This document shows positions 18,084 to 37,322 of a DNA stretch of 64,000 nucleotides, one piece after another. The stretch's first letter is position 1; every line of letters starts with the position of its first letter. Source of the DNA: Lentibacillus sp. JNUCC-1 (GTDB taxonomy: Bacteria > Bacillota > Bacilli > Bacillales > Amphibacillaceae); assembly GCF_009741735.1 (NCBI RefSeq), contig NZ_WHOH01000001.1, positions 868,001 through 932,000 on the forward strand, given 5' to 3'. The position numbers and the translations under genes were made by a program. The notes beneath the pieces are model-generated. The model was not told where the DNA came from. It saw only the letters and a program-made list of their open reading frames with translations, and searched no databases.

Positions 18084-19790
18084 TTATGTTTGATCACTTC
18101 CACCTGTTAGACGGGAAGCAATTGCCTGTAATACCAGCACCAATACGATCAATATCACAGACATAGCTGCAGCTGAATAGTACTCTGCTCTCAGGATGTT
18201 CTGAAAAATTGCTAGACTCATGGGAGCCCAATCTGCAGGTGCCATTAATATGGAAATACTTGTTTCTTTAATGACTGTAATAAATACCAGTATTGAACCT
18301 GCTGCGATACCAGGAAGCATTAGCGGCCCAATAACGGTAATTGCTGCAGTAAGTGTTGAAGCGCCAAGGTTAACCGCTGCTTCTTCAATATCAGCTTTAA
18401 TAGACTGCATTGTTCCCACAGTAGACCTAACCATATATGGGAGACGTCGAATAGTATATGCAATGATCAAAATCGTCGCTGTACCTGTTAACTGCAAAGG
18501 CGCTGTATTAAAGGTTTGGATCAATGCAATACCAAATGCAATACCGGGAACAATCAATGGAATAGTCGTCATAAAGTCCAAAGTTCCGGAATTCTGTCTT
18601 ACAACAAAATACGATACAAATGTAGCAATAACAATACTCAATACCAATGCTCCGGCAGCCAGGATCAAACTATTTTGTATATTACCCAGTGACGATGAAA
18701 AGATATCTTTGTAATGTTGCAATGTATACCCTGAAGGTAAAGGATCCTTACCCCAAGTTTTTGCAATAGACTGCATGAACACAGTAAGCATTGCAAACAG
18801 AGGAATCAATACAACAAACCCTGCGAATGCAGATAAAGACCTGCCCAACAATTTACTTTCATTTAATTTAATTTGCTTAGGCTTTCCAGAAACAGAATCA
18901 TAATTCTTTCCTTTAAAAAAGAAGTTCTGCAACCAGAATACGAATCCAGCAACCGCAATCATAATTACTGTCAAGATAGCCGCGCCGCCCCAGTTGAAGA
19001 ATCCAGAGATCTCTCTATATGCTTCTACAACCAACAAGTTAAGATCCGTTGGCGCCAAAATAATTGGAGTACCAAAGTCAGAAAAACTAACGGCAAATAT
19101 AACCAAAGCTGTAGAAAGCATTCCTGGGACTACCAAAGGAAATGTTACCGTAGAAAATGTAAGCCAGCTTTTAGCCCCCATGTTTCTTGAAGCCTCTTCC
19201 AACGAAACATCGCTTACTTTAAATGCGGCAACCATTGGCCATAAAGCATAAGGGAAAAAGAAGAATACTTGAACAAGCACAATCCCTGTAAAGGAATATG
19301 GATCTATCAAAAATCCCTCTCCACCCAATGATTGATAAATATATGTTACCCATCCCGATCTTCCAAACATTATGATAAAGGCATAAGCCGAAATAAATGT
19401 AGGAACAATCAACGGGAGTGTACAAAGAGCACTGATCGTCTTTTTAAAGGGCATTTTTGTTCTTGCGATTCCATATGCAATAGGAATACAGACTATCAGC
19501 ACTATAATAGACACGAGTAATGATAAGTAGAGACTGTTCCCAAGAGCATCATAATAAGTGCTGTTGGATAAAATGGCTTTAAAATTGTCCAATGTAGAGT
19601 TCTTAAATTGATCAATCGTTGTTTGCAGGGTGTCCATACTAATTAATGAACCGAATAAATTAATGGGTTCATCAGTGAAACTAACTAAAAAAACAGATAT
19701 TAAAGGTAAGATCAAAAACAATAGGAAAAACCCGATTATTAGATACTTAACAATATTAATACCTGTTAAGTGTTTTTTAATCCATTTCAT
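18084..19790 (-). CDS. ABC importer permease, two fused membrane domains
   Basis: This 568-aa inner membrane protein has two binding-protein-dependent permease domains in one chain (about residues 15-290 and 320-560), each with an EAA-type loop ('EEASRNMGAKSWLTFSTVTFP' split type near 195-215; 'EEAAVNLGASTLTAAITVIGP' near 468-488). The layout is that of FbpB/ThiP/phosphonate-type importers. Its ATG overlaps the ATPase stop by four bases. Substrate is not determined: iron-type and 2-aminoethylphosphonate-type systems share the fold, while neighbours (GDPD, HAD phosphatase, GlpP, GlpD) favour a phosphorylated glycerol compound. Confidence 0.82.
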   Translation of the reverse strand: MKWIKKHLTGINIVKYLIIGFFLLFLILPLISVFLVSFTDEPINLFGSLISMDTLQTTIDQFKNSTLDNFKAILSNSTYYDALGNSLYLSLLVSIIVLIVCIPIAYGIARTKMPFKKTISALCTLPLIVPTFISAYAFIIMFGRSGWVTYIYQSLGGEGFLIDPYSFTGIVLVQVFFFFPYALWPMVAAFKVSDVSLEEASRNMGAKSWLTFSTVTFPLVVPGMLSTALVIFAVSFSDFGTPIILAPTDLNLLVVEAYREISGFFNWGGAAILTVIMIAVAGFVFWLQNFFFKGKNYDSVSGKPKQIKLNESKLLGRSLSAFAGFVVLIPLFAMLTVFMQSIAKTWGKDPLPSGYTLQHYKDIFSSSLGNIQNSLILAAGALVLSIVIATFVSYFVVRQNSGTLDFMTTIPLIVPGIAFGIALIQTFNTAPLQLTGTATILIIAYTIRRLPYMVRSTVGTMQSIKADIEEAAVNLGASTLTAAITVIGPLMLPGIAAGSILVFITVIKETSISILMAPADWAPMSLAIFQNILRAEYYSAAAMSVILIVLVLVLQAIASRLTGGSDQT

Positions 19791-20908
19791 AGTAGTAACA
19801 CCCTTTCAGGTGACACTCCTAATTTCACTGTCGCTCCATTTTCCATGATGCTATCGCCAGATTCATAGATTGTATCTGCAACAACATTATATTCGCCTAC
19901 TGTGATGTCATACCTAACAGTCGACCCTAAATAAGTCGCGAATTGAATAACACCTTCAAAGTAGTTATCATACTCCATCGAGTGTTTATTAATAACATTA
20001 ATGCTCTCTGGTCTTATGACCACTTGTACATCTTCCTTGTCCAAATCGACTACTGTTTGCACCTCTTGTTCCCCAAATCGAACAACAGAATGCCCGTTTT
20101 CTTTACGAACTACTTTTCCATTGAAAATATTCGATGTCCCAACAAAATCTGCAATAAATGGTGATTTAGGGTTACTATACAAATCAGTCGGTGTCCCAAT
20201 CTGCAATATTTCACCTTTATTCATTACTGCTACACGGTCAGCCATGCTCATCGCTTCTTCCTGATCGTGTGTTACAAAAATTGTGGTGATTTTCAAATCT
20301 TGTTGTATCTTTCTAATCGTATTTCTCATAGAATGTCTTAACTTCTGGTCTAAATTGGATAAAGGCTCATCCATCAGAAGAACTTCCGGTTCCATAATAA
20401 GCGCTCTTGCTAAGGCAACTCTTTGCTGTTGTCCCCCTGAAAGCTCACTGGTTAATTTATTTGCATGCTCTGTTAATTCCACATATTCAAGTATACTCAT
20501 TACCTTTTTCTCAGTTTCCTTCGAATATTTAACGAGTTTACTATTAAGCATTCTTGTATACACACCAAACTTCTTAAAGATGTTGCTGTCTCTAAGTTGT
20601 TTCACATTTAAGCTATATGCAACGTTATCGAAAACGTTCATGTGTGGGAACAAAGCATAGCTTTGAAACACCATACCGCAGTTTCTATTGTTTGGCGCTA
20701 TGTCATTCACATTGTTACCGCCAATTTTTATGACCCCTTTTGTTGGTTGTTCAAAACCGGCAATACATCTCATTGTCGTTGTCTTCCCACAACCTGAAGG
20801 ACCCAAGAGGGCAAAAAACTCGCCCTCTTCAATGTCCAAACTTATATCGTGCAGTACAGTTGTACCCGAAAAGTCTTTTCTTAGCTGTTCTACTACCACT
20901 GACCCCAT
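19787..20908 (-). CDS. ABC importer ATP-binding protein (PotA/FbpC type)
   Basis: This ATPase (about 373 aa) energises the adjacent importer. Walker A GPSGCGKTT is near residues 37-45, the Q-loop 'VFQSYALFPHM' near 80, the signature LSGGQQQR near 156, and Walker B 'VLLMDEPLSNLDQKL' near 178. The C-terminal 110 residues form the TOBE-type regulatory domain. The ATG at 20908 is preferred because AAAGGAAG lies nine bases upstream; a TTG at 20917 is too close to it. It follows the binding-protein gene by about 15 bases. Confidence 0.88.
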   Translation of the reverse strand: MGSVVVEQLRKDFSGTTVLHDISLDIEEGEFFALLGPSGCGKTTTMRCIAGFEQPTKGVIKIGGNNVNDIAPNNRNCGMVFQSYALFPHMNVFDNVAYSLNVKQLRDSNIFKKFGVYTRMLNSKLVKYSKETEKKVMSILEYVELTEHANKLTSELSGGQQQRVALARALIMEPEVLLMDEPLSNLDQKLRHSMRNTIRKIQQDLKITTIFVTHDQEEAMSMADRVAVMNKGEILQIGTPTDLYSNPKSPFIADFVGTSNIFNGKVVRKENGHSVVRFGEQEVQTVVDLDKEDVQVVIRPESINVINKHSMEYDNYFEGVIQFATYLGSTVRYDITVGEYNVVADTIYESGDSIMENGATVKLGVSPERVLLL

Positions 20909-20923
20909 TGAAATCAACTTCCT

Positions 20924-21961
20924 TTAATTAATATTAGCTTTCCACTCATCACGGATCCGGTCATAATTTTCGTTTACCCAGTCAATATCCAGATCAACAG
21001 CATTCTCCTTCAAATTATCGAGAGTTAATGGTGTTTTTGATTCAACATCTGGGTTAATCGGGATATGGTACCAATCCGCCAGTATTTCTTGTGCATCTTC
21101 ACTTAACATAAAGTCCATGAACTTCTTTCCGCCCTCTGGGTTAGGACCATCTTTTACAAGAGTCATAGGATTAACCAGGATAGGCGTTTTTTCTGGAACA
21201 ATAAAATCAACTGTTTCCCCATTGTTTTTATGTTCATAAGCCATGAAGTCAAATCCAACAGCAATATGGGCTTCTCCCATTGCAGCACCTTTAGTTGGAC
21301 CAGAGCCAGAGTCAGGAATTGAGTTTGCCTGGTCTGCTAAAGCCTGGAAATATTCCCAACCTTCTTCCTCACCATGCTGCATCATATAACTTAACACCAT
21401 AAGTGTAGCTGTTCCTGACGCAGCAGGATTCGGGAATTGAATTTTTCCTTCCCATTTTGGATCCAGTAAATCTTCCCATGTTTTTGGTGCTTCCTCTTCT
21501 GAAACCAACTCAGTATTATAGGCAAATCCCAGAACAAACATTTCTGCTCCTACATAATAACCATCTTCATGTTTCATCTTGATACCGTTTTCAACAACTT
21601 CCCAGTCTTCCGCATTTTCTGGAATATATGATGTAATGATATCTTTATCTACTGCAGCCTCAAACGGCAGTATGCCTCCGCCTCCGTACCACACATCGGC
21701 TTTTGGATTTCCTTTTTCAGCCATCATCTGATTGACCAATACGTTTGTGCCTGCATAATGGACGTCAACTTTACCCCCGTGCACTTCCTCATACTTTTGT
21801 GCCAATTCCTTTGATAAGTCAGGTGTCTCCGGTGAGTAAAGTGTTATTGACCCGCCATCGCCATCTCCTCCACCATTAGAAGAGGAACTGTCATCACCTG
21901 CGCAGGCACTAAGAAATAACACCAAGAAAAGTGCCGATAAAAACACAGTAAACTTCTTCAT
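20924..21961 (-). CDS. Substrate-binding lipoprotein of the ABC importer (FbpA-like)
   Basis: A lipoprotein that captures substrate outside the cell. From ATG at 21961 it has MKKFTVFLSALFLVLFLSAC, a lipobox ending in Cys, then an acidic Gly/Ser linker. The mature fold is type 2 periplasmic-binding ('ITLYSPETPDLSKELAQKYEE' type start; 'ADVWYGGGG' hinge; 'WEDLLDPKWEGKIQFPNP'), typical of iron and phosphonate binders. Absence of the paired tyrosines expected in Fe-binding FbpA could not be settled by eye. It is the first gene of the operon and is transcribed separately from the GDPD gene upstream, which has its own terminator. Confidence 0.83.
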   Translation of the reverse strand: MKKFTVFLSALFLVLFLSACAGDDSSSSNGGGDGDGGSITLYSPETPDLSKELAQKYEEVHGGKVDVHYAGTNVLVNQMMAEKGNPKADVWYGGGGILPFEAAVDKDIITSYIPENAEDWEVVENGIKMKHEDGYYVGAEMFVLGFAYNTELVSEEEAPKTWEDLLDPKWEGKIQFPNPAASGTATLMVLSYMMQHGEEEGWEYFQALADQANSIPDSGSGPTKGAAMGEAHIAVGFDFMAYEHKNNGETVDFIVPEKTPILVNPMTLVKDGPNPEGGKKFMDFMLSEDAQEILADWYHIPINPDVESKTPLTLDNLKENAVDLDIDWVNENYDRIRDEWKANIN

Positions 21962-22216
21962 AAATCCAACCCCCATTTTATTTTTTATGAATTCTCTAAA
22001 AACAAAAAGAAGAAAAATAAACACAGACCCATTCGCGAGGAAAGGGTTTTCATTTATTTCTCTTCTCCTGGATTCTCTTAGAGATATTCAATTGCTTACA
22101 GTTTAGCAAAGATTTTACCTTTTGTAAACAAAAATTTTAAAATACTTAAAAGCAATATTATTTTCACAGACATCATGAAATATCTCATGCAGGATCTTTT
22201 ACAGTGTGCGTAAAAT

Positions 22217-22276: not shown

Positions 22277-24574
22277 TTAACGTGATACATTAACTCTTAT
22301 GGGTTTAGAAACCAGATTCCATTCTTCACCGATCATATCAAATGTGTGGATCGCGAAGACATCGGCTTGTCCAGGCGACAACGCGGTTATGGTGTTCTTA
22401 TTCACGTCAACAACATTCAAGTTCCCCTCAGTAAACAAGGTCGTTTCGATGTTTTTCTTTTTATCTGCTCGATAATTTACAAATGTTTTAGCTTTGATTG
22501 TTGCAGATTTGCCAACTTTGAGGTTACGCTTCTTGATAGGTGTCTCAATGATTGTTGGTGCATCTGTAAGCCATTGTGTGTAATCAGTAATCGGTCCAAT
22601 GAGACCTTTTTTCAACAGGTCTTCAAGTGGCGGCTGTGAACGGAAAGTCCAATGCATACTGATCATGCCGCGTTGTCTAAGATAAGTAACAGACTCCTCC
22701 GAAAGGCTGCGATGACTAGAATTTAGTCTTGCACCAATTGCAGTTGCATAATTCATCATTTGTTGCGCATCTTCTACTCTCGCCTCAGGGGTGGCAGCTA
22801 CTGACGAAGAATACAAATAACCAACACTCATTTCGGGAGCTATTTCTCTGAACTTCTTGACATGTTCAACGGAAAAGCTTTGCAAGACCACTTTATCTTC
22901 AATTCCTGCATCTTTTATCTCTTGTAAAACCGCTTCTTCAATATTGTCTGCTTTTAATTCGACCAGTAGTACTACGTCTTTCTTCTTGAAACCATCTAGG
23001 AACTCTTTGAATGTTGGCACTTTTTCTCCTTCAAAATCTGGACCGAAAATAATTCCTGCATCTAATTGTCGAATTTCATTCAATGTCAAATCTGATACTT
23101 TTCCTGTACCATTTGTTGTTCGATTAACGGTGCTGTCATGCATAATGATCAAGTGCCCATCTTTTGTTTGTTGAATATCTGTTTCAATTAAGTCTGCACC
23201 TAAGTCATAGGCCAAATTGTATCCAGCCATAGTATTTTCCGGTGCTAATGATGGCACTCCACGATGGGCAACTACGATGGGGCGCTGAACCAATGTCTTT
23301 TCCGGATATTGGCTAAATGCATTAACAGTCGATGACGGACTCGATGTAACGATTCCATCTACACCATTATGGATCAAAGAGTGTATATCATCTCCGATAC
23401 CCCATACCGCAATTGCGCGTGCATGAAAGAAATGAACAGTGTCAGTTGTAATTAATTTTTCCGGAAGAGCTACAGTCATTGAATTTGTCAAATTCGCATC
23501 TTCAACAAGCTTTTGCAAATCATGCTTGTTTAGGTGATTTTTTTCATATAATACAGTTCCGCGTACTGTAGGATGTGCTTCCTTAATTTCTCTAATTATG
23601 TCAAGGTTTGATGACAGTACATGGGCATCGTTTATGGACGCTGAATCCAAAACATCAATAACACCAGGGACCGCATTAACATCCTCGACTTTTATAACAG
23701 GAATAAACTTTCCACGGATTTCATCAAGAAGGTCTGTCAATAGTTGATCTCCAACTGATATGTCACCGCTTTCATTTAGTTCAGCAGGAAGCAACGTTGA
23801 GGAAACCCCTTCCAACTGTGAGATTTCGTTTGGAATATAACTGGATATAACCGTTGGCGCATTCAGCATATTGGTTTCAGGTTCATCAGGTAAGAAAGCA
23901 TTATTATCTTCCATGGGCGGCAAATCTTCTGTCCTCGTCTTTACAAGTACATTGTCAAATTCAACAGTTGCCCCGGAAACCTGGAAGCCAAGATCACCTT
24001 CATACCATGTATCTGCCAAGTCCGTATCAATTACCAATTGTCCATTAACAAAGTGCTGAACACGATTATCTTTTACGATCACCTTCAAACGGTGTGTATC
24101 ACCATATTGAAAGTCTTCAGGGTAGAAGGTTTTTTCTGGAACATTCCAGGAATTGGATTCTGTCCGAATGGCGAATTCCAAACCATTAAGGGCGGAAGTA
24201 CCACGTCGTACAGCAAACTGGTAATAAGGGTAATCCTCATTTTGAACACGGTACATCAATGAAGCCCAGCGAGCGTCATTTACAGCGGATTTAAATGTCA
24301 TATCAGCTTCAAATACATAATCACCAGTGCCCTTAGGCATTGGAATTAGAACACGAGATGGATTAGAAATATTCGGTGATGTTAATAAAAGTTTGCTGTC
24401 AGTTACTTCTGCGTTTCCTTGAATCACATTCCAATTCTCAGGCATGGTACCCTGATCAAAGTTTTCATCAATTAACTTCTCTCCACTCGCTGAAGCAAAC
24501 TGTTTCTCTACTGTACTAAAACCCAAAAAAACGATTGCTGCCATAGATACAATCCATACCATTTTTTTAAACAA
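22277..24574 (-). CDS. Large secreted glycerophosphodiester phosphodiesterase (GlpQ-like)
   Basis: A 765-aa exported enzyme that hydrolyses glycerophosphodiesters to glycerol-3-phosphate and an alcohol. It starts with TTG at 24574, seven bases after GGAGG. Domains: signal peptide (1-30); a concanavalin/LamG-like beta domain (about 33-215, 'LIDENFDQG' to 'VEFDNVLVK'); a linker domain (about 235-430); the GDPD TIM barrel (about 434-680) with catalytic 'VVAHRGVPSLAPENTMAGY', 'LIETDIQQTKDGHLIIMHD' and 'VNRTTNGTGKVSDLTL'; and a C-terminal Ig-like tail. Standard GlpQ is about 290 aa, so this is a multi-domain form, perhaps wall- or polymer-targeting (teichoic acid is one possible substrate). Confidence 0.88.
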   Translation of the reverse strand: MFKKMVWIVSMAAIVFLGFSTVEKQFASASGEKLIDENFDQGTMPENWNVIQGNAEVTDSKLLLTSPNISNPSRVLIPMPKGTGDYVFEADMTFKSAVNDARWASLMYRVQNEDYPYYQFAVRRGTSALNGLEFAIRTESNSWNVPEKTFYPEDFQYGDTHRLKVIVKDNRVQHFVNGQLVIDTDLADTWYEGDLGFQVSGATVEFDNVLVKTRTEDLPPMEDNNAFLPDEPETNMLNAPTVISSYIPNEISQLEGVSSTLLPAELNESGDISVGDQLLTDLLDEIRGKFIPVIKVEDVNAVPGVIDVLDSASINDAHVLSSNLDIIREIKEAHPTVRGTVLYEKNHLNKHDLQKLVEDANLTNSMTVALPEKLITTDTVHFFHARAIAVWGIGDDIHSLIHNGVDGIVTSSPSSTVNAFSQYPEKTLVQRPIVVAHRGVPSLAPENTMAGYNLAYDLGADLIETDIQQTKDGHLIIMHDSTVNRTTNGTGKVSDLTLNEIRQLDAGIIFGPDFEGEKVPTFKEFLDGFKKKDVVLLVELKADNIEEAVLQEIKDAGIEDKVVLQSFSVEHVKKFREIAPEMSVGYLYSSSVAATPEARVEDAQQMMNYATAIGARLNSSHRSLSEESVTYLRQRGMISMHWTFRSQPPLEDLLKKGLIGPITDYTQWLTDAPTIIETPIKKRNLKVGKSATIKAKTFVNYRADKKKNIETTLFTEGNLNVVDVNKNTITALSPGQADVFAIHTFDMIGEEWNLVSKPIRVNVSR

Positions 24575-25009: not shown

Positions 25010-26242
25010 ATGCAAGATTTTCAAGAGCGGTATGATGTGTTTCAGTCAGCACTGGAAATACCTGAACCATGGTACGTATTTCATCATGAACTGGCCAAAG
25101 AAGAAAACACGTTGCACATTTATATTGAATATAGGTCAGGGGCCGAATTTTCCTGCCCCAACTGCGGTAAATCTGGATGTAAAGTTCATGATACCCTGGA
25201 TCAAGATCGGACATGGAGACACCTTGATTTCTGGCAGTATCAAACCCTGCTTCGGGCAAGAATGCCACGAGTAAAGTGCGATGCTTGTGGTAAAATACGT
25301 ACAGTGCACATTGACTGGGCACGCTCTGGTGCCGGATTTTCCTTTCTTTTTGAACAACATCTTTTATCGTTAATGATTGAGATGCCTGTTGCCGCAGTCG
25401 CTCGTAAAGTTGGTGAACATGATACTCGCCTTTGGCGTGTGTTTAATTATTATGTCAATAAAGCAATGGAAGACATGGATATATCGGAATTAAAGCGCGT
25501 TGCCATGGATGAAACGTCTCGCGCCAAAGGGCATAAATATATCACGCTTTTTATTGATATGGACACAAAACGCTTGATATTTGCCACCAAAGGAAAAGGC
25601 GCGGACGTTCTACAGGATTTCTGCCTCCATCTTGATCATAAAGGGGTCTCACGCTCCCAAATTGAGGATATCTGTTGTGATATGTCTCCATCATTTATAT
25701 CAGGTATTGAAAAGAACTTCCCAAATGCTTCAATTACTTTCGATAAATTTCATGTAATGAAATTGGTCAATGAAGCGTTGGATCAAGTACGTAGAGAAGA
25801 ACAAGCAACACAACCGGAACTCAAAAATTCACGCTACGTATGGTTGAAAAACCAGGGAAATCTAACTAAAAAGCAGGAAGCTCAATTTCAAAAACTCAAG
25901 GACATGGACTTAAAAACAGGACGCGCATACCGCATGAAGTTATCGCTTCAAAACATGTGGACACGGTCTTACATTATTTCCAAACTCTACTTTAACGAAT
26001 GGTACAATTGGGCAACACGTTCCCAACTTAAACCAATGATTGATGCCGCCAAATCTTTAAAGAGGCACCAGGATGGTATCTTAAGGTGGTTCGAAAGTAA
26101 GATGACCAACGGTCTGATTGAAGGGACTAACAGTCTGATTCAAGCGGCCAAAAGAAAAGCCCGAGGTTATCGTACAGCCGAGAATTTTATTGCCATGGCA
26201 TATGCGACAGTCAATAAGCTGGATTTGATCAAACAATCATGA
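25010..26242 (+). CDS. ISL3-family transposase
   Basis: A 410-aa transposase, full length. The N-terminal zinc ribbon is visible: 'FSCPNCGKSGCKVHDT' near residues 44-59 and 'VKCDACGKIRTVH' near 86-98. The DDE domain follows, with 'VAMDETSRAKGHKYITLFID' split near 165-184, 'DICCDMSPSFISGI' near 222-235 and the Glu in 'GLIEGTNSLIQAAKRKARGY' near 370-389. The ribosome binding site CAGGAGATG lies before the ATG. Confidence 0.94.
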   Translation: MQDFQERYDVFQSALEIPEPWYVFHHELAKEENTLHIYIEYRSGAEFSCPNCGKSGCKVHDTLDQDRTWRHLDFWQYQTLLRARMPRVKCDACGKIRTVHIDWARSGAGFSFLFEQHLLSLMIEMPVAAVARKVGEHDTRLWRVFNYYVNKAMEDMDISELKRVAMDETSRAKGHKYITLFIDMDTKRLIFATKGKGADVLQDFCLHLDHKGVSRSQIEDICCDMSPSFISGIEKNFPNASITFDKFHVMKLVNEALDQVRREEQATQPELKNSRYVWLKNQGNLTKKQEAQFQKLKDMDLKTGRAYRMKLSLQNMWTRSYIISKLYFNEWYNWATRSQLKPMIDAAKSLKRHQDGILRWFESKMTNGLIEGTNSLIQAAKRKARGYRTAENFIAMAYATVNKLDLIKQS

Positions 26243-26508: not shown

Positions 26509-26542
26509 AAACGCACCCTCACATATACACGAGGATGCGTTC
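26509..26542 (-). terminator. Terminator of the betaine-binder operon
   Basis: AACGCACCCTC pairs with GAGGATGCGTT (one mismatch), followed on the minus strand by TTTTTT. It lies about 50 bases after the stop at 26595. Confidence 0.8.
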
Positions 26543-26594: not shown

Positions 26595-27497
26595 TTACTC
26601 AGTTTCCCCAACCCATTCATCAATCAGATCCTGATTATCATCTATCCAGTTCTGGGCGCCTTCTTCTTCTGATTCAGCTTCATTCAGTTCCGCCATGAGG
26701 CTGCCAAGCTGGTCGTCATTGAGTTTGAAGTTATCAAACCATTCAACGACCTCAGGATATTCGTCTTCAAATCCCAGGCGAATCCCATAATGAATATCTT
26801 CTTGGTCACCGTAGATGTTTTTGTCGTCTTCAAGTAATTTTAAATCCATTTCTGCAAACACCCAATGTGGCTTCCAGAGCGTGACAACTATCGGTTCTTC
26901 GTCTGCCATTTTCTTCTGTAATTCCGAAATCATGGCTGGTTCAGATGAGGAGACCAAGTTGTAATCGAGCCCGTATTCCTCGATCACATCCCCAGTCAAC
27001 TCCATAATGCTTGAACCAGGGTCAATGCCGATGATTTCGGAGTCCAATTTCGCTTCCATGCCTTTTAAATCTTCAATGCTGTTGATGTCTTCCATATACT
27101 CTGGAACAGCTAAAGCTAAATCCGTCCCTTCATACCATGGCTCACGCAAATCGATTTTATCTTCATGTTTTTCGTAGTATGGTTTATCGGTTATTGGCAT
27201 CCAGATTTCCATACCGATATCAACATCTTTTTGAGATAATCCTTCATAAAGGATCGCTTTTTCGACGGCTTTGAGGTCAACCTCGTAGCCTTTATTCTCT
27301 AAAATGATTTTCCACATGTTAGACACAGCGACGTTTTCAGCCCAGTTGTTCATTCCAATCGTAATAGGTGCTTTATCTTCTGGTTTTGCGTCGTTTCCAT
27401 TTGCGCCGTCATTGGCATTTTCGTCTCCGCTACAAGCAGCAAGTACTAAAATCATTCCTAATAATGTAGTGAAAAGTAGTTTTTTAATATTTTTCAT
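26595..27497 (-). CDS. Glycine betaine/DMSP-type substrate-binding lipoprotein (OpuAC family)
   Basis: A 300-aa lipoprotein that binds a quaternary-ammonium or sulfonium compound. The signal peptide ends with the lipobox LAACSGDENAN. The mature part is an OpuAC/ProX-type fold: 'ITIGMNNWAENVAVSNMWK' near residues 45-63, 'DIGMEIWMPITDKPYY' near 97-112, and 'VVTLWKPHWVFAEMDLK' near 209-225. Tryptophans at these points are those expected to form the aromatic cage around a positively charged head group. No permease or ATPase genes are adjacent, so it must use one encoded elsewhere. It follows the DddP-like gene by 31 bases, pointing to uptake of that enzyme's substrate. Confidence 0.87.
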   Translation of the reverse strand: MKNIKKLLFTTLLGMILVLAACSGDENANDGANGNDAKPEDKAPITIGMNNWAENVAVSNMWKIILENKGYEVDLKAVEKAILYEGLSQKDVDIGMEIWMPITDKPYYEKHEDKIDLREPWYEGTDLALAVPEYMEDINSIEDLKGMEAKLDSEIIGIDPGSSIMELTGDVIEEYGLDYNLVSSSEPAMISELQKKMADEEPIVVTLWKPHWVFAEMDLKLLEDDKNIYGDQEDIHYGIRLGFEDEYPEVVEWFDNFKLNDDQLGSLMAELNEAESEEEGAQNWIDDNQDLIDEWVGETE

Positions 27498-27528
27498 AAA
27501 AAATCCCCCTTTTGTATGTCAGTTCCGT

Positions 27529-28743
27529 TTATTTTAAAAGTCTTTCTTCAAATGGGAATGAAGAAAAGTTTTCCACGCCATCACTTGTGACGAGTAGTTG
27601 TTCTTCAAGTTTCACGCCTTCTTTTCCGCCGGGTGAACCAATATAGCTTTCAACAGAAATGACCATGTTTTCTTCAATGATCCCATCATAACCAACTTGG
27701 TCAAAATCCTGAGGATGGACAATGTATGGATATTCGCCACTCAACCCTGTTCCATGGGCAACGGTAAAATAACGATTTGGGACGAATTCTTCAGGTATTT
27801 TCCAGCTTTTATCGGAGTACTCTTTAAAAGTCATTCCCGGTTTAAGCAAATCGATATTATATTGAACCTGTTCATAGGCTAATTGATAAAGGCGTTTTTG
27901 TTCATCTGTCGGTGGGCGTTCGCCACAGTAAAATGTTCGGCTGATGTCTGTGAAATACCCGAATGGTCCGTTCATGTCGGTGTCGAATCCTACCAGATCA
28001 CCTTCCTGGATGACTCTGTCACTACATTCCTGAAACCATGGATTCGTTCTTTCCCCTGAACTTAGCAAACGGGTTTCAACGTAATCTCCACCTTGCGCGA
28101 TGTTGACTTGATGAAGATAAGACCATAATTCATTCTCAGTGATACCAGGCTGCAAATTCTCAACCATGCGAATCATGCCCGCTTCAGCTGTTCTGACCGA
28201 TATTTTCATGGCGTCAATTTCTTCGGGGGACTTGATGCTTCGTGCATGCTCAACAGGTTCCTGTCCGTCAACGACGCGCATGCCTTCTTTCGCTAAAGCA
28301 ATTGCACCTGCAGGATTGATGCGATCGATAGCGATTTTGTTATTATCTCCTGCATATTGACGCATAAGATCAGCTATTTCCTGTGCCCATTGCTTGGATA
28401 CACTTTCAAGATGTTCTCCAGAGGCGACGTAGGACATGGTTAATGCCGGGCGCACTTCGTCTATGGTTTCTATTCCTTCTGATAGATGTTCGCAATTCGG
28501 GAAGTCGAATAAAACGACGGGGCCTTCCGTGGGAATAAATGTATAACGGGCGGGGTTACGTAACATAAACACTTGCATGTTACGGCTACCAGTAGCGTAT
28601 CGCAAATTCACCGGATCAAAAAGCACGATCCCACCATACTCTAATGATTTTAACTGTTCACGAACACGATTCAGACGATATTGACGCATTCTTGCTAAGT
28701 CTATTTGTGTTTTGTCATGACGAATGCTATTAATTTTTTCCAA
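27529..28743 (-). CDS. M24-family metalloenzyme resembling DMSP lyase DddP
   Basis: A 404-aa M24 (pita-bread) protein. TTG at 28743, preceded by GAGGTG, is the best start; the frame itself opens 23 codons earlier. From memory of DddP sequences, long stretches agree: 'MRQYRLNRVREQL', 'GGIVLFDPVNLRYATGSRNM', 'ETRLLSSGERTNPWFQEC'. All metal ligands are present: D and D in 'GFDTDMNG', D in 'FTDISRTF', H in 'TVAHGTGL', E in 'ISVESYIG' and E in 'KLEEQLL'. However the Asp proposed as catalytic base of DddP (six residues after the His) is Gly here ('HGTGLSGEYP'). So the substrate may be DMSP or a related betaine or peptide. The OpuAC binder and GntR gene belong to the same locus. Confidence 0.75.
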   Translation of the reverse strand: MEKINSIRHDKTQIDLARMRQYRLNRVREQLKSLEYGGIVLFDPVNLRYATGSRNMQVFMLRNPARYTFIPTEGPVVLFDFPNCEHLSEGIETIDEVRPALTMSYVASGEHLESVSKQWAQEIADLMRQYAGDNNKIAIDRINPAGAIALAKEGMRVVDGQEPVEHARSIKSPEEIDAMKISVRTAEAGMIRMVENLQPGITENELWSYLHQVNIAQGGDYVETRLLSSGERTNPWFQECSDRVIQEGDLVGFDTDMNGPFGYFTDISRTFYCGERPPTDEQKRLYQLAYEQVQYNIDLLKPGMTFKEYSDKSWKIPEEFVPNRYFTVAHGTGLSGEYPYIVHPQDFDQVGYDGIIEENMVISVESYIGSPGGKEGVKLEEQLLVTSDGVENFSSFPFEERLLK

Positions 28744-28791
28744 AAAAGTCACCTCACAAAATGTTAATTCCTGTCTTTGAAGACGTAACTT

Positions 28792-28827
28792 ATTATAACA
28801 TGTATCAATCATATTGCAACATGTTAT
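28792..28827 (-). promoter_or_regulatory. Sigma-A promoter with overlapping inverted repeat (candidate GntR operator)
   Basis: On the minus strand TTGCAA (28814-28819), 16 bases, then TATAAT (28792-28797) make a near-perfect sigma-A promoter for the M24 gene. ATAACATGT (28795-28803) and ACATGTTAT (28819-28827) form a perfect inverted repeat that covers both promoter boxes. Binding there would block RNA polymerase. The adjacent GntR regulator is the obvious candidate. Confidence 0.7.
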
Positions 28828-28862
28828 TCAATACGTGTCCTAGGTGGGAGGTGATCGATACG

Positions 28863-29573
28863 TTATTCGTAACCGATTTCGATGCGATAATTAAAGTGTT
28901 CAGGCAGGTATTTTGTTTTTGAAAACTCGATCGGCTGGCGGTCAGTGCCAAGGGTCACACGGTTAATACCGATTAACGGATCCCCGCATGAAATACCCAA
29001 TAAGTCCGCTTCATGTTGATTGACTAATGAAGCAGTCACATCTTCTTTGATATTTGAGTATGTCACGCCATTCATACCGAGCAGAGGGAAAATATCAAAC
29101 CATGAAGCTGCTTTCTCTTCAATCAGGTGACCAATCTTGGCGGGGGTATAGAGCTGCTGAATACCGATTGGGACGTCATCTGCCAAGCGGACACGTTCAA
29201 GAAAGTATATGGATTTGTTTTCTTGTTTTAATTGATGTTGCGCATAATAATGGTCAGATACATACTGTGATCTTAGAACTTTAGCAGAAAAGTCCGTACC
29301 GAGTTCATGGTGAACAATTCCCGGGTTTTCCATTTTATCATTAGGGGTTGTTTTTATACGTGCAACAGCCCCGCGGCGGGTTTCAATAATGCCTTCCTGT
29401 GTCAAATCACGAATGGCCTGCCGAATCGTTGTACGGCTTACATTAAACTGTTGCATCAGATCGCCTTCAGAAGGAAGCGGGTCCCCAGGCATCCATTCCT
29501 GATTTTTTATTCTTGCCATTAACTTCCCTTTTATTTGCACATACAGGGGGATTTTTCGCTGTTCTTTAGCCAT
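28863..29573 (-). CDS. GntR-family regulator, HutC/UTRA subfamily
   Basis: A 236-aa DNA-binding repressor or activator. The N-terminal winged helix (about residues 8-75) has the typical 'PLYVQIKGKLMARI', 'GDPLPSEGDLMQQFNVSRTTIRQAI' split motif and 'GIIETRRGAVARI'. The rest is a UTRA effector domain ('YFLERVRLADDVPIGIQ', 'GDPLIGINRVT', 'IEFSKTKYLPEHF'). ATG at 29573 has AGGAG at good spacing, and is preferred to an upstream ATG. It lies just upstream of the M24/OpuAC operon, whose promoter bears an inverted repeat, so local control is likely. Confidence 0.88.
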   Translation of the reverse strand: MAKEQRKIPLYVQIKGKLMARIKNQEWMPGDPLPSEGDLMQQFNVSRTTIRQAIRDLTQEGIIETRRGAVARIKTTPNDKMENPGIVHHELGTDFSAKVLRSQYVSDHYYAQHQLKQENKSIYFLERVRLADDVPIGIQQLYTPAKIGHLIEEKAASWFDIFPLLGMNGVTYSNIKEDVTASLVNQHEADLLGISCGDPLIGINRVTLGTDRQPIEFSKTKYLPEHFNYRIEIGYE

Positions 29574-30324: not shown

Positions 30325-30353
30325 CTTATACTATAAAAATGGAGAGTGGTAAT

Positions 30354-30641
30354 ATGCGCCACATTAGACCCATATCTGATTTACGAAATCACTTTGCGGA
30401 TAATTCCAAAACAGTTCATGAAGATCAAGAACCTGTCTATCTTACAAAAAATGGCTACGGTGATATGGATGTCATGAGTATTGAAGCTTATGAACAAAAG
30501 CTGTTTGAAAGTGACATATATCAGAAGCTGAAAGAAGCAGAGTTAGATGCAAAATCGACTCAAACACGACACACGCACGAAGATGTTTTTCATAGTATAC
30601 GAAAAGGACTTTCCGAAAAAAGTGGTGGTGAAAATGTATAA
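30354..30641 (+). CDS. Phd/YefM-family antitoxin, copy 1
   Basis: A 95-aa antitoxin: the N-terminal DNA-binding Phd/YefM fold ('MRHIRPISDLRNHFADNSK', 'PVYLTKNGYGDMDVMSIEAYE') and a C-terminal toxin-wrapping tail. It is nearly identical to the copy at 38511-38798. ATG at 30354 has GGAGAG before it. The toxin start overlaps its end by 8 bases, but that toxin is dead, so this antitoxin may persist as an antidote for the second locus. Confidence 0.85.
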   Translation: MRHIRPISDLRNHFADNSKTVHEDQEPVYLTKNGYGDMDVMSIEAYEQKLFESDIYQKLKEAELDAKSTQTRHTHEDVFHSIRKGLSEKSGGENV

Positions 30642-32047: not shown

Positions 32048-32139
32048 ATTTTTATTTTTCATATTAAGCAATGTAATTCCTTTTCTTTCCCCCATCACTT
32101 AAACTGACTCTAAGATCTCTACGACAAGGAATGATTCCC

Positions 32140-33186
32140 ATGAACTACTACACCGATGTGCTTCAATATAGAGGAAATCACTATGATTTTGGCTATTACC
32201 AAGGCGAATTGCTAAAGCATTCTCCAATTATCTCTAACCGTCAAAAACAATGGGGGCCAAAGAAAGATCGCCATTTTATTGTTGATGAAAAACTTTATGG
32301 ACGTATTATGGGTAAGTTTTCTCCTGCTATCTTGGAAGAAATTCACGGGCTTGCGGATGCGCTTGAGATGAATCTCACGGAGGCATACCGGCTGTTTGGC
32401 GGTTATTATCGTGAGTTTGTTCGAAGTGGGTGTTCGATTTTTGCGGATCCGGATTTTATGGTGCGAAATTATGACAGTCATCCGGTGGGCTATGAGGGAA
32501 GATATGTGTTTTATCAGCCCACTGATCAGGGTTATGCGGTTCTCGGGCCGTCGATGCAGATCACTGGCCGTATTGACGGGATGAATGAAAAGGGGCTTGT
32601 GCTCGGTTATAACTTCACCCATAGCAAAAAATCAGGTGACGGATTTCTGTGCAATATGATTGGGCGGATCATTTTGGAGAATTGCGCAAATGTGGACGAG
32701 GCGATCGACTTACTGAAGGAACTGCCCCACCGGCACTCATTCAGCTATGTGATTTTGGATCCCGATGGTGAGTCCTATGTCGTGGAGGCTTCTCCGCGAG
32801 AGGTTGTGGCACGGCAGTCGAATGTGTGCACCAATCATTTTCACGTGCTCGATGAGGAAAATCGCTACCGACAAGCGGAAACGAGACAGCGTGAGGAGAC
32901 CATTCTGGAGCAGCAACAGCACGCGACAAATCCGCTGCAGGCGTTTCAAGTCATGAACGATCCGCAATATGATGTTTTTTCAAAGAAATACGATGCATCG
33001 GCTGGCACGATTCATACAGCTGCTTATTTTCCAAAAGAAATGAAAGCTTGGTTTGCGATCGGTCCCAATCGTATGCCTGTTATTTTTGACTTTGAAAAAT
33101 GGCTTCGGGGGAAGGACGTGCATGTGAAACGGATTAAAGGTGAGTTGGCTTATATGAGGGCGTTTGTGATTATGCGAGAATTGTAG
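32140..33186 (+). CDS. C45-type (acyl-CoA:6-APA acyltransferase family) hydrolase
   Basis: A 348-aa Ntn-hydrolase-like protein of the penicillin acyltransferase/choloylglycine group. The nucleophile Cys is in 'FVRSGCSIFADPDFMVRNYD' (about residues 92-111); precursors are cut just before this Cys. Other marks are 'GRIDGMNEKGLVLGYNF' (about 147-163), 'HSFSYVILDPDGESYVVEASP' split near 197-217 and 'VCTNHFHVLD' near 225-234. AAGGA nine bases before ATG 32140 favours it over ATG 32131. Substrate is unknown; amide bonds of acylated amino compounds are usual. Two dead 3' pieces of the same gene lie at 29806 and 50941. Confidence 0.82.
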   Translation: MNYYTDVLQYRGNHYDFGYYQGELLKHSPIISNRQKQWGPKKDRHFIVDEKLYGRIMGKFSPAILEEIHGLADALEMNLTEAYRLFGGYYREFVRSGCSIFADPDFMVRNYDSHPVGYEGRYVFYQPTDQGYAVLGPSMQITGRIDGMNEKGLVLGYNFTHSKKSGDGFLCNMIGRIILENCANVDEAIDLLKELPHRHSFSYVILDPDGESYVVEASPREVVARQSNVCTNHFHVLDEENRYRQAETRQREETILEQQQHATNPLQAFQVMNDPQYDVFSKKYDASAGTIHTAAYFPKEMKAWFAIGPNRMPVIFDFEKWLRGKDVHVKRIKGELAYMRAFVIMREL

Positions 33187-33683: not shown

Positions 33684-34247
33684 ATGGCCTGGTTCTTTGG
33701 GAAAAAAGAGAAAGCACCTGATCCTGTTATTGATGAAATAAACGCCTTAAAACAGCAATCACATACAACAGAAGACAAACTTACAAGCCTTGAACAACAC
33801 ATGCAGAAATTAACCAGACTACAATATAAAACAAGTAAATCCATGGAAGACAAGCTGGACCATTTAGTGGCAAAGCAGACCAAACAACAGTCCAAAACGT
33901 CTGATCACACTACTCAGCACCAGCTCGTCAGCCATTTAATCAGTCAAATCGATGACATGGATATGGTCTATAATCAACTGTCCAATGATCCTCAATGGGC
34001 CGGATTGCTGGAAAAATGGATTGAATCATCACTAAAGACGCTCGCAACGATTGGCATAACGGAAACGATTCAAATAGGAAATACCTTTGACCCTAGTCGC
34101 GCTGAGGCGGTCGAAACCATTCCACCGACTGGACAGCACCAGCCTTTTGAAATCAGTGCCATTCACAAACGCGGCTTTGCCTATGCGGATGGATCGATCT
34201 ATCGAAAAGCACAGGTCACAACCGTAAAAGAGGAGGACAAATCATGA
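33684..34247 (+). CDS. GrpE-like nucleotide exchange factor of an auxiliary Hsp70 system
   Basis: This 187-aa protein has GrpE architecture: an N-terminal charged tail, a long coiled coil (about residues 15-75) and a C-terminal beta domain ('[20 protein letters not shown]' then '[20 protein letters not shown]', about 118-175) like GrpE's FDP...GY...R.A.V. GrpE releases ADP from Hsp70. Sequence is far from the housekeeping GrpE. AAAGGAG precedes the ATG, and the TGA stop overlaps the ATG of the Hsp70 gene, so the two are coupled. Confidence 0.75.
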
Positions 34248-36064
34248 CACAAGATGCGACAACCAATCAATCTTTTCGCCCCATCATTGGCATTGACCTG
34301 GGGACGACCAACTCGGCCGCTGCCTACATACATAACCAAAATCCAGCCATGCTTGAGATGAACAATGCTTCATTCATGCTGCCTTCAGTCGTGTTACGTG
34401 ATCCAAATGGTCAGGTGATTGTCGGTGATGATGCCAGGAGCGCGCTTGTGGCCATGCCCCAGTACACCAAATCAGCCGTCAAACGGGAGATGGGCCAGGA
34501 TACACGCATTGAGCTGGGGAACCAATCCTACAGACCTGAAGAAATTTCCGCCATGATTCTGAAGGAAATTAAAAAGCAAGTTGAAAGCCAGCTCTCAGAA
34601 GGGGAAATTGAAGCGGTCATCACTGTCCCAGCTTATTTTACAAACCAGCAGCGCCAGGCAACCAAAGAAGCCGGTGAACTGGCCGGATTCGTTGTGGAGC
34701 GCATTATCAACGAACCAACTGCTGCTGCGCTGGCTTATGGCATACAGAACATGAAAAACGACGGTCATATACTCGTCTATGATCTTGGTGGCGGGACATT
34801 TGATGTCTCTGTCGTCGAGCTTATGGACGGCATTCTTGAAGTCAAAGCTTCTGCCGGTAACCACCGATTGGGGGGTGAAGATTTTGACTGGGCACTTGTG
34901 GACTGGTTCGCTGAAAAAGTAATCGATGAACATCAGATCGATCCTAGAGAAGAACCGCGGGCAAAAGCTCGATTGAAAGAAGAAGCGGAGCATGTGAAAA
35001 AGCAATTATCTTTTAAAGAAGCCGTTGATGTTTCCATCCCGGTTGCTACTGTCAGTGGCAACCGTCCAATCGGCCTGGAAACAACCATTACGCAGGAGCA
35101 GTTTGTCCATTTGATCAAACCGTTCCTCGCTGAAACTCAATATAATCTTGAATATGTCTTGGAAGAAGCCGGGCTCGCCCGCGCAGACATTGATGACGTC
35201 ATCCTCGTTGGCGGATCGACCAGAATTCCCAACGTTCAAAAACTTGTAACGGATTTCTTTGGCAAGACCCCGCATTCTGAGATCAACCCGGACGAGGCAG
35301 TTGCACTCGGGGCTGCCGTTCAGGCTGGCATCAAAGCTGGAACACTTCAAGACAGCGGACTGATCATTACCGACGTTGCCCCTTTTTCCATGGGTGTTGC
35401 AGTAGCGGGAGAAATTGAGCGCGAGCTGGTCCCAGGGCAGTTTCACGCAATTATCGATCGAAACACAACAATCCCTGTTACACGGACACACACCTTTTCA
35501 ACGACGTTCGATCATCAAACAGCTGTCACTGTTGAAATTTACCAGGGGGAAAATGACTGGGTCACAGATAATTACTTCCTAAATGAATTTTCACTCGAAG
35601 GACTTCCAGCAAAACCAGCCGGACATGAAGCCGTTGACATCACATTCCGCTATAACATTAATGGCATTCTGGAAGTCACTGCCAAGAATGCGTCCAGTGG
35701 CAATGAAATGACCGTGACAATCGAGGATGCTATTGATCGCAGTTCGGATGATGCGTTTGCAGACAGTCTTGCCAATATTGAAGCTGCTTATGGACAAGGG
35801 GCCGACAATACCCAGCAACTTGATCATTGGAGCGAAATCGATGTAACAGATGCGATGGAATCCCATGCTGATTTGCTCAAAGAAGCACGTGATTGGAAAG
35901 ACCGCTTGCAAGAAGCGTTCAACAGTAATGTTGACAACGATCAAAGCGCCTCATTGCAAGATGTGATCAACCAACTGGACGCCGCGATCCAATCCAAGAA
36001 TGCCATAACACTGAACGACGCAATCGAAAACGCGATTGACCTGGCAATCAATCTGGAGCTTTAA
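34244..36064 (+). CDS. DnaK-like Hsp70 chaperone (second, non-housekeeping type)
   Basis: A 606-aa Hsp70. Signatures: '[15 protein letters not shown]' near residues 15-29, '[16 protein letters not shown]' near 183-198 and '[17 protein letters not shown]' near 318-334. The substrate-binding beta domain follows (about 385-500), and the helical lid (about 505-606) is shorter than in DnaK and lacks the acidic EEVD-like tail region. The protein does not have the fixed DnaK loop 'GERKMAxDNK' ('[20 protein letters not shown]' is found instead). Neighbours are a GrpE-like and a J-domain/TPR gene, so this is a self-contained chaperone machine, perhaps for stress or envelope work. Confidence 0.9.
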
Positions 36065-36077
36065 GGAGGGCCTGCCA

Positions 36078-37322
36078 ATGTCGAAGCAAGACCAAAGCTA
36101 TTATAAAATCCTGGGCACTACCGCAAACATTAGCCAGCGTCGCATTAAAGAAAAGTATATTAGCGCCGTCAAACAACATCCACCGGAAACAGATCCCGAG
36201 CAATTTGAAAAAATACGCGAAGCCTATGACACATTAAAAGACCCTGTTAAACGTAAACAATACGATCTATCGCGCAAGTACGGCGGCGACATTGAAAAAA
36301 TGCTGGAGAAGGCTGACAAACTGACCATCAATGAAAACTACGAAAAAGCGGAAAAAGTACTCCTTGACGTATTGCAGATTGATCCGGATATCTTGAGCGC
36401 ACAACTTGGTGTCATATTCGTCCGATTACGTCTCAACCAAATCAACAAGGCACATCAGATGTTGGAAAAGCTGCTGTCCTCACCAGCTTTGTATGAAGAT
36501 GAAGACCTTACACCCGCCATGGTGTACGCCGCTTTCGGCAAGGTCTTGATAGACCTCGGTCACATCGATGAAGCGATTCATTTTTTGGAGCAAGGGGTTG
36601 AACAATTCTCTGATGAAGGCCGTGAAATAAATGACCTATTAACAATTACTTATTTAGATACTGGTCAGGATCAAAAAGCCATAGAAACCGCTGAAAAAAA
36701 CGTACCGCCAGCAGACCTCCAACCATCTATTGATGATTTTGACCGTTACGTTAACTGGTTGTATGCCATTCTTAATACCAACAGTTGGCCAGAACTTTCA
36801 AAAGTGAAGGCCCGTTTTCGGAAGTACTTGAAAAATCTGCAGGACCCTCAAGAACGCGAAGAAGCATTTTCGGTGCTTTCAACCGAATATGTAGAATTGT
36901 CCGAAGTTTATCGTTACCGGGATGCAGAAGTCTTTTTGGAACTGGCAACCGTCACTAATCCACAGGACCAGGACGCAAAAAGCGCTCTAAAAGAAGCCAA
37001 ACAATTAGCCCGTGCCGAAAAAGAAATCGGCAAACTCGTTGGGGATGAAACCATTTTTCCACTGATGATCTATCATAGCGTTCATTGGTTTTATAATGAC
37101 GACGATTATCCCCTGGTTCGTGAACTTGATTATCTGTTCAATTCGGAGGCCATTAACGCACTAAAAGCAGAAACAGACTTTTACGCTGCAGGTATTCTAA
37201 AGCTGCAAAAAAACTATCCCGTCTTATATAATATGTTCAAGTCTGAATGGGACGCATTATACCAAGACCTCACTAAACACATGAACCGCGAAGCCAAACG
37301 CGAATTGAAAAAACTGATGTAG
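36078..37322 (+). CDS. J-domain/TPR co-chaperone with HPP in place of HPD
   Basis: A 414-aa protein beginning with a J-domain (about residues 6-70): 'SYYKILGTTANISQRRIKEKYISAVKQHPP' split, then 'FEKIREAYDTLKDPVKRKQYD'. The catalytic HPD tripeptide that triggers Hsp70 ATP hydrolysis is HPP here. The rest (about 80-414) is TPR-like helices ('NYEKAEKVLLDVLQIDPDILSAQLG'). AAGGAGGG lies upstream of ATG 36078, 14 bases after the Hsp70 stop. It may target clients through TPRs, while the changed motif suggests weak or altered stimulation of Hsp70. Confidence 0.83.
   Translation: MSKQDQSYYKILGTTANISQRRIKEKYISAVKQHPPETDPEQFEKIREAYDTLKDPVKRKQYDLSRKYGGDIEKMLEKADKLTINENYEKAEKVLLDVLQIDPDILSAQLGVIFVRLRLNQINKAHQMLEKLLSSPALYEDEDLTPAMVYAAFGKVLIDLGHIDEAIHFLEQGVEQFSDEGREINDLLTITYLDTGQDQKAIETAEKNVPPADLQPSIDDFDRYVNWLYAILNTNSWPELSKVKARFRKYLKNLQDPQEREEAFSVLSTEYVELSEVYRYRDAEVFLELATVTNPQDQDAKSALKEAKQLARAEKEIGKLVGDETIFPLMIYHSVHWFYNDDDYPLVRELDYLFNSEAINALKAETDFYAAGILKLQKNYPVLYNMFKSEWDALYQDLTKHMNREAKRELKKLM

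What the first reader, a model, noticed from the sequence alone, without database searches (positions are those of the whole stretch)
26595..29573. DddP-like enzyme with a betaine/DMSP-type binder and GntR control
The M24 protein resembles DddP (DMSP lyase) over its length and keeps all six expected metal ligands, and the gene after it encodes an OpuAC-type lipoprotein with aromatic-cage tryptophans. This would be a locus for taking up and breaking down DMSP or a related onium compound in a Gram-positive. The proposed catalytic-base Asp of DddP is Gly here (HGTGLSGEYP), so it may be a new activity: a different lyase, a betaine-type hydrolase or a dipeptidase.
Basis: partly seen in the sequence, partly recalled or inferred. 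Interest (0 to 1): 0.75.

Follow-up and report, generated by a model that had tools for sequence, protein, structure and literature searches.

The report
Betaine-linked relative of DMSP lyase
A probably salt-loving Gram-positive bacterium carries a small, self-regulated gene pair that most likely captures and breaks down a betaine-type osmolyte, using an enzyme from the same family as a marine DMSP lyase but with a rebuilt active site, so what it acts on is unknown and worth testing.

The parts
28863..29573 (-). GntR/UTRA (HutC-type) regulator, ATG at 29573
   Evidence: PF00392 69.5 bits and PF07702 66.7 bits. Adjacent to the M24 gene in 25 of 27 Bacilli loci, i.e. 23 of 24 distinct genomes, once on the opposite strand.
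28808..28825 (.). operator box 1 (1 mismatch to AACWTRTTRYAAYAWGTT), over the -35 element
   Evidence: Tandem boxes in 22 of 27 loci and 0 of 5400 single-base shuffles.
28787..28804 (.). operator box 2 (1 mismatch), over the -10 element
   Evidence: At one mismatch or fewer these two are the only such sites in the genome, but the reversed control pattern also finds two.
28792..28819 (-). predicted promoter TTGCAA - 16 - TATAAT with TG before the -10
   Evidence: 10 of 12 matches. The region holds no more such sites than shuffles do (8 against a mean of 9.8), so the position and the operator overlap carry the weight.
27529..28743 (-). M24-fold, DddP-like enzyme, Gly-type subfamily, 404 aa, TTG start
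26595..27497 (-). OpuAC-type betaine-binding lipoprotein without a permease or ATPase gene beside it
   Evidence: PF04069 237.5 bits. 45-52% identical to the binders of 12 Halomonadaceae M24 loci, at most 39.6% to 9 of its 11 own-genome paralogues.
26509..26542 (-). terminator-like hairpin closing the M24-binder unit
   Evidence: 13-bp stem then U run, -22.7 kcal/mol, z -3.9. Not reported by the simple scanner.

Best explanation
The locus is a ligand-inducible unit for one betaine-type onium compound. Inferred working: GntR sits on a tandem operator over the promoter of the M24-binder operon and lets go when the compound or a product appears. The lipoprotein cages the cationic head between tryptophans and hands the compound to an OpuA-type transporter encoded elsewhere. 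In the cytosol the M24 enzyme holds the substrate's carboxylate on its binuclear metal site and breaks or rearranges a bond next to it. I favour lyase or isomerase chemistry over hydrolysis, because the family lacks the active-site His of the M24 hydrolases it was compared with. With Asp377 gone, Tyr325 (DddP Tyr366) or a metal-bound water would have to be the base; Arg62 and aromatic residues 221, 264, 326 and 340 reshape the pocket for something other than DMSP. Shown here: genes, family, fold, residue switch, gene linkage, conserved operator-like boxes. Inferred: GntR binding and induction, transport partner, substrate class. Unknown: the substrate and the reaction.
For: Fold and family. 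Metal ligands and Tyr366 invariant in 78 of 78 rows. Gly336 in 34 rows goes with Arg62 (34 of 34, against His in 29 of 32 Asp-type non-DddP rows), Tyr/Phe221 (34 of 34, against Trp in 32 of 32) and Tyr/Phe264 (34 of 34, against Cys in 28 of 32). Gene linkage, counted as a homologue anywhere in the locus: of 81 loci (26 Gly-type, 54 Asp-type including two DddP loci, 1 untyped), a HalD-like 2OG oxygenase in 23 of 26 and 1 of 54; OpuAC of this kind in 12 of 26 and 2 of 54; MttB in 2 of 26 and 26 of 54; Rieske alpha in 0 of 26 and 6 of 54. OpuAC directly after M24 in 6 of 24 distinct Bacilli genomes; on the same strand after M24 in 12 of 12 Halomonadaceae loci, directly in 9 and with one ORF between in 3 Chromohalobacter loci; and about 2 kb from M24 in genome G691 of another Bacillota lineage. 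The window binder is closer to the Halomonadaceae binders (234-254 bits) than to 9 own paralogues tested (at most 192 bits). Betaine transport genes lie beside three Pontibacillus M24 loci (BCCT), and a whole betaine-type ABC transporter (ProV-like ATPase, two permeases, OsmF-like binder) lies directly upstream of GntR in L146. Operator. Missing His.
Against: No substrate, binding or activity data exist. 18 of 24 Bacilli genomes lack the binder directly after M24, so the pair is not obligatory. None of the 21 Bacilli genomes searched that have the enzyme has a HalD-like oxygenase (control genome G427 positive), so the proteobacterial pathway cannot simply be transferred. The window binder has no permease or ATPase next to it. 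Pseudomonas Gly-type loci (10) carry an SBP_bac_5-type transporter instead of OpuAC, and amidase-family neighbours in L088/L096 (isochorismatase family) and L156 (carbon-nitrogen hydrolase) hint at a different chemistry in part of the subfamily. One row inside the Bacilli clade (P0042) has Ser, not Gly. Many loci come from a few genera (Mesorhizobium, Pseudomonas, Halomonadaceae), so the counts are not independent events.
Confidence: 0.6

Rival explanations
1. It is a functional DMSP lyase: a divergent DddP that makes DMS and acrylate from imported DMSP, with Tyr325 as base.
For: DddP fold and all six metal ligands plus Tyr366 kept. Tyr366 was itself proposed as an alternative base (PMC4108388 passages). 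Divergent functional DddPs exist: the fungal FgDddP, 32% identical to RdDddP, and Oceanimonas DddP2 and the scallop-symbiont DddP (PMC10989825 passages). OpuAC-type proteins can bind DMSP (recalled).
Against: Asp377, called invariant in DddP lyases, is Gly in this clade, with one Ser row. Equivalog score 376 of 600. Outside the Roseobacter DddP clade. No AcuI equivalog over cut-off in the genome: best 77.5 against 297 bits. Relatives' loci hold oxygenase or N-demethylation genes; acrylate genes were not searched for in them.
Confidence: 0.12
2. It releases a compatible solute or nutrient by hydrolysing a betaine conjugate (amide, ester or guanidino compound); one step would be enough for a halophile.
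For: No operator-like sites were found outside this locus, so a single enzymatic step may suffice. The names of many hosts suggest halophiles or alkaliphiles. Amidase-family neighbours in Gly-type loci L088, L096 and L156.
Against: The active-site His of the compared M24 hydrolases is absent. No direct substrate clue.
Confidence: 0.17
3. It is an ordinary M24 dipeptidase, creatinase or ectoine hydrolase.
For: Shares the pita-bread fold and Pfam domains.
Confidence: 0.07
4. The binder's place beside the enzyme is accidental, or it is a sensor rather than an uptake protein.
For: No transporter genes beside it in the window; not directly after M24 in 18 of 24 Bacilli genomes. The genome holds 12 OpuAC-family proteins.
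Against: The same binder subtype (NNWAEN, E(I/V)WxPxTD, WYxxT, TLWxPH) recurs near Gly-type M24 in Halomonadaceae and another Bacillota lineage.
Confidence: 0.12

Closest known systems
DddP DMSP lyase (RlDddP 4rzy, RdDddP 4b28)
   Different: Asp377 to Gly, His98 to Arg, Trp262 to Tyr, Cys305 to Phe here (Tyr or Phe across the Gly-type rows), shorter N-terminus, separate clade, score far under the equivalog cut-off.
Uncharacterised 'Xaa-Pro peptidase family' proteins in betaine-demethylation loci (Mesorhizobium MttB/DMGDH-type/BHMT; Rhizobium and Caballeronia Rieske loci; Terrarubrum)
   Same: Same DddP-like M24 family, about 43-51% identity to the window enzyme, beside betaine transport or N-demethylation genes.
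   Different: Asp-type active site in the rows named; different partner enzymes; LysR or GlxA regulators annotated near the plasmid loci.
HalD-like oxygenase - M24 - OpuAC loci of Halomonadaceae
   Same: Closest linkage: Gly-type M24 (about 51-53% identity) followed by the same OpuAC subtype (45-52%).
   Different: A HalD-like 2OG oxygenase (PF23169) precedes M24; no homologue in 21 Bacilli genomes with the enzyme. LysR-type genes lie beside it where Bacilli have GntR.
OpuAC / ChoX betaine- and choline-binding proteins
   Same: PF04069, three cage tryptophans aligned.
   Different: Best NCBIfam is ChoX at 137 of 379 bits; no cognate permease or ATPase in the operon.

Membership tests
DddP DMSP lyase | NCBIfam equivalog NF043017 at or above 600 bits | tested here: not met
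   375.9 bits
DddP DMSP lyase | six binuclear metal ligands | tested here: met
   D254 D256 D266 H330 E365 E380, invariant in 78 of 78 rows
DddP DMSP lyase | Tyr366 | tested here: met
   Tyr325, 78 of 78 rows
DddP DMSP lyase | Asp377, favoured catalytic base | tested here: not met
   Gly336; invariance in DddPs stated in PMC4108388
DddP DMSP lyase | inside the Roseobacter DddP clade | tested here: not met
   DddP rows form their own 11-row clade; window sits with Bacilli sequences. Oceanimonas DddP2 and fungal DddPs were not in the tree.
DddP DMSP lyase | DMS and acrylate from DMSP | not testable with these tools
   needs an enzyme assay
Prolidase / aminopeptidase P | active-site His of the PH motif | tested here: not met
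   Phe237 here; no His in 78 of 78 family rows; His in all 10 prolidase-type and DoeA-type outgroup rows
Prolidase / aminopeptidase P | placement in the prolidase clade | tested here: not met
   SH-aLRT 99
Ectoine hydrolase DoeA | TIGR02993 at or above 613 bits | tested here: not met
   33.8 bits; separate clade
Creatinase | closest relative by sequence | tested here: not met
   46.8 bits against 299 for DddP; no creatinase was in the tree
OpuAC-type betaine-binding protein | PF04069 domain over cut-off | tested here: met
   237.5 bits against 21.2
OpuAC-type betaine-binding protein | three cage tryptophans | tested here: met
   W52, W99, W208 aligned with OpuAC tryptophans; that these form the cage is recalled
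OpuAC-type betaine-binding protein | permease and ATPase in the same operon | tested here: not met
   hairpin after the gene
HutC/UTRA GntR regulator | GntR plus UTRA domains | tested here: met

The most novel reading that the evidence does not exclude
DddP is one late branch of a large, uncharacterised family of metal-dependent betaine-cleaving (or enolising) M24 enzymes. The Gly-type branch is a new enzyme class: a lyase for a nitrogen betaine with a base other than DddP's Asp, often served by its own binder, and passed between Proteobacteria and Bacillota.
Probability: 0.3. Interest if true: 0.78.

Novelty: new variant of a known kind. Interest (0 to 1): 0.52.

Why it matters
Homology searches with DddP also meet these proteins. 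If most of the family acts on nitrogen betaines, dddP counts that rest on loose homology would overstate DMS production, and DddP's origin becomes a testable question: the Asp/Gly switch and its partner positions can be swapped and assayed. The subfamily also gives an entry to how halophilic Bacilli use or recycle betaines, with a ready handle (operator, binder, enzyme) for finding the substrate.

Tried and rejected
DMSP-specific reading: tested by model score, residue, clade and AcuI check; kept only as a rival.

Prolidase, DoeA and creatinase readings: rejected on clade, motif and score.

Truncated transporter operon: an ISL3 transposase (25010-26242) follows the binder gene, so I asked whether the insertion cut off permease genes. 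A terminator-like hairpin lies between them. Of the other loci, only a few genes after the binder were scanned and none is a permease (L146 ATP-grasp; L046 one without a domain and one LysR). I dropped the idea, but it is not excluded.

A wider GntR regulon: the operator pattern at one mismatch or fewer gives only the two local sites in the genome, equal to the reversed-pattern control count, so no further members were found.

Betaine N-demethylases in the host: no MttB and no Rieske alpha subunit; other demethylase types were not searched.

HalD-like oxygenase in Bacilli hosts: none in 21 genomes, positive control found; an earlier run without control was set aside.

Early trees used wrongly cut outgroup reading frames and were replaced. 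That tree left out family rows P0047, P0050, L061, L088, L090, L093 and L096 (most for long branches, L096 as a near copy of L088) and the outgroup DoeA_L134. The first binder tree used wrongly cut paralogues and was replaced (without F_L146_up5167, R_L086, R_L088 and R_L093_proX; also without own_L123, own_L127, own_L129 and R_L091). Two of the 11 own paralogues had no locus and were not compared.

Oceanimonas DddP2, the scallop-symbiont DddP and fungal DddPs were not fetched, so their residue at position 377 and their place in the tree are untested. A search of viral contigs with a DddP found nothing. The plain Foldseek search was not run.

Literature: ten searches of the open PMC library. 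Those meant to find an M24 or DddP-like enzyme in betaine catabolism or in Gram-positives listed nothing that I recognised as a description of this subfamily; only listings were read apart from passages or one section of the four papers named. PMC12478193 (passages only) has no 'peptidase', 'M24' or 'Xaa-Pro' in its main text.

Full report
WHAT IS THERE. On the minus strand lie a GntR/UTRA regulator (28863-29573), an M24-fold enzyme and an OpuAC-type lipoprotein (26595-27497). The M24 reading frame listed by ORF calling starts at 28812, but most close orthologues are 404 aa and the window's own record in the protein set starts at the TTG at 28743. Between the binder gene and an ISL3 transposase (25010-26242, PF01610) lies a 13-bp hairpin with a U run (-22.7 kcal/mol, z -3.9), so the operon most likely ends after the binder.

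ACTIVE SITE. The six metal ligands and Tyr366 are invariant in 78 of 78 family rows (ligand list from PMC4108388 section 8). DddP Asp377, the favoured base and, with Tyr366, 'invariant throughout DddP lyases' (PMC4108388 passages), is Gly in 34 rows, Asp in 43 (11 DddP and 32 others) and Ser in one (P0042, within the Bacilli clade). With Gly go Arg62 (34 of 34; His in 29 of 32 Asp-type non-DddP rows), Tyr or Phe at 221 (34 of 34; Trp in 32 of 32), Tyr or Phe at 264 (34 of 34; Cys in 28 of 32), Phe326 (31 of 34; none of 32) and Tyr340 (31 of 34; none of 32). I call this the Gly-type. Where 10 of 10 prolidase-type and DoeA-type outgroup rows have a His (mostly in a PH motif), the family has RTNPW followed by Phe in 71, Leu in 3, Met in 2 and Tyr in 2 of 78 rows, and no His (one row has a His one position further on). 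That argues against peptidase or ectoine-hydrolase chemistry. The role of that His in M24 hydrolases is recalled, not tested.

GENE LINKAGE IN PROTEOBACTERIA. There are 26 Gly-type, 54 Asp-type and 1 untyped. Counted as a homologue anywhere in the locus, a HalD-like 2OG oxygenase (PF23169) is in 23 of 26 Gly-type and 1 of 54 Asp-type; OpuAC like the window's in 12 of 26 and 2 of 54; MttB in 2 of 26 and 26 of 54; a DMGDH-type FAD protein in 2 of 26 and 28 of 54; betaine-homocysteine methyltransferase in 0 of 26 and 23 of 54; the Rieske alpha subunit in 0 of 26 and 6 of 54. The loci are heavily redundant by genus. In the 12 Halomonadaceae loci the binder follows M24 on the same strand, directly in 9; in 3 Chromohalobacter loci an ORF lies between, and the two scanned (L072, L077) are a second 2OG-Fe(II) oxygenase (PF03171). 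Annotated plasmids show the betaine theme plainly: Rieske oxygenase plus an iron-sulfur reductase plus M24, with 4-hydroxyproline epimerase and a glycine-betaine transporter in Rhizobium; MttB, an isochorismatase-family protein and a glycine-betaine binder in Sinorhizobium; MttB and betaine-homocysteine methyltransferase in Terrarubrum. A second HalD-M24 pair in Vreelandella subterranea (L156) is also Gly-type and lies beside an OsmF-like binder with transporter genes and a carbon-nitrogen hydrolase.

GENE LINKAGE IN BACILLOTA. OpuAC follows M24 directly in 6 of 24 genomes (window, L007, L140, L141, L145, L146). Pontibacillus loci L015, L143 and L150 have a BCCT transporter gene upstream. In L146 a whole betaine-type ABC transporter lies directly upstream of GntR: two permeases, an ATPase best matched by ProV (317 bits, just under its cut-off of 327) and an OsmF-like binder. 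In an order-wide sample the enzyme is in 21 of 397 genomes and 11 of 136 genera, and the one sampled congener lacks it. In a phylum-wide sample it is in 2 of 398: this genome and G691. G691, of another Bacillota lineage, has a Gly-type M24 (HGCGMTGEYP) overlapping a radical-SAM gene, and an OpuAC with the same NNWAEN signature about 2 kb away.

THE BINDER TRAVELS WITH THE ENZYME. The window binder is 45-52% identical (234-254 bits) to the binders of 12 Halomonadaceae loci, but at most 39.6% (192 bits or less) to 9 of the 11 other OpuAC-family proteins of its own genome. The G691 binder shows the same pattern. In the tree with six own paralogues, the binders from M24 loci stand apart from them (21 rows, 91/96, below the star level).

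REGULATION. Comparing the GntR-M24 gaps by eye gave a palindromic box AACWTRTTRYAAYAWGTT in tandem about 20 bp apart. Two boxes at three mismatches or fewer, 19-23 bp apart, occur in 22 of 27 loci (20 of 24 genomes) and in 0 of 5400 single-base shuffles. The consensus was drawn from these same loci, so the count is descriptive. The one genome without the GntR neighbour (L016=L152) has no box better than 7 mismatches; L142, L145 and L146 have one box but no tandem. In the window the boxes are 28787-28804 and 28808-28825 and cover the -10 and -35 of a predicted promoter. At one mismatch or fewer there are no other sites in the genome; the reversed control pattern also finds two, so genome-wide rarity alone proves nothing. 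That GntR binds these boxes is inferred.

HOW IT MOST LIKELY WORKS. See Best explanation. The step from 'betaine-type' to a particular compound cannot be made from these data. The host has 12 OpuAC-family proteins, no MttB, no Rieske alpha subunit and no AcuI equivalog over cut-off, and none of 21 Bacilli genomes with the enzyme has a HalD homologue. In Bacilli the enzyme therefore seems to act alone on what is imported, or with partners not yet recognised.

LITERATURE. PMC4108388: passages and section 8. PMC6309047: passages; in 2018 its authors knew of no functional ddd or dmdA gene in any Gram-positive. PMC10989825: passages on the symbiont DddP, 55% identical to Oceanimonas DddP2. PMC12478193: passages. 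Everything else was seen only in search listings.

Noticed in passing
25010-26242 (+): ISL3-family transposase (PF01610, 252 bits) just downstream of the binder gene, on the other strand.
   Followed up: partly
22277-24574, 20924-22024, 19787-20917 (-): Glycerophosphodiester phosphodiesterase followed by an SBP_bac_6-type binder and an ABC ATPase, possibly a separate uptake operon.
   Followed up: no
30339-30641 (+): Phd/YefM-type antitoxin gene upstream of the GntR gene.
   Followed up: no
32131-33186 (+): Protein of the acyl-CoA:6-aminopenicillanic acid acyltransferase (AAT) family, 216 bits.
   Followed up: no
34244-37322 (+): Hsp70-like protein followed by a J-domain-like protein, judged from the sequence only; looks like a non-canonical DnaK/DnaJ pair.
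   Followed up: no
L156:8004-10274: Second HalD-like oxygenase plus Gly-type M24 pair in Vreelandella subterranea beside an OsmF-like binder and a carbon-nitrogen hydrolase.
   Followed up: partly
L157:8491-9315: A third HalD-like oxygenase (PF23169) of the same genome next to genes that look, from their sequence alone, like histidine-utilisation genes.
   Followed up: no
L077:9155-10219, L072:9171-10214: In Chromohalobacter a second 2OG-Fe(II) oxygenase gene (PF03171) lies between M24 and the binder gene.
   Followed up: partly
L182:7569-10212: In genome G691 a radical-SAM gene overlaps the M24 gene; Halomonadaceae have a HalD-like oxygenase gene before M24 instead.
   Followed up: partly
L091:7497-20912: Rhizobium plasmid locus with Rieske oxygenase, M24, 4-hydroxyproline epimerase, glycine-betaine transporter, FAD oxidoreductase, aldehyde dehydrogenase and DHDPS-like gene: looks like a hydroxyproline-betaine pathway in which the M24 step is unassigned.
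   Followed up: no
L094:7857-9206: Paracoccus yeei gene annotated dddP sits beside alcohol-dehydrogenase-, mandelate-racemase-, DMT-transporter- and hydantoinase-family genes.
   Followed up: no
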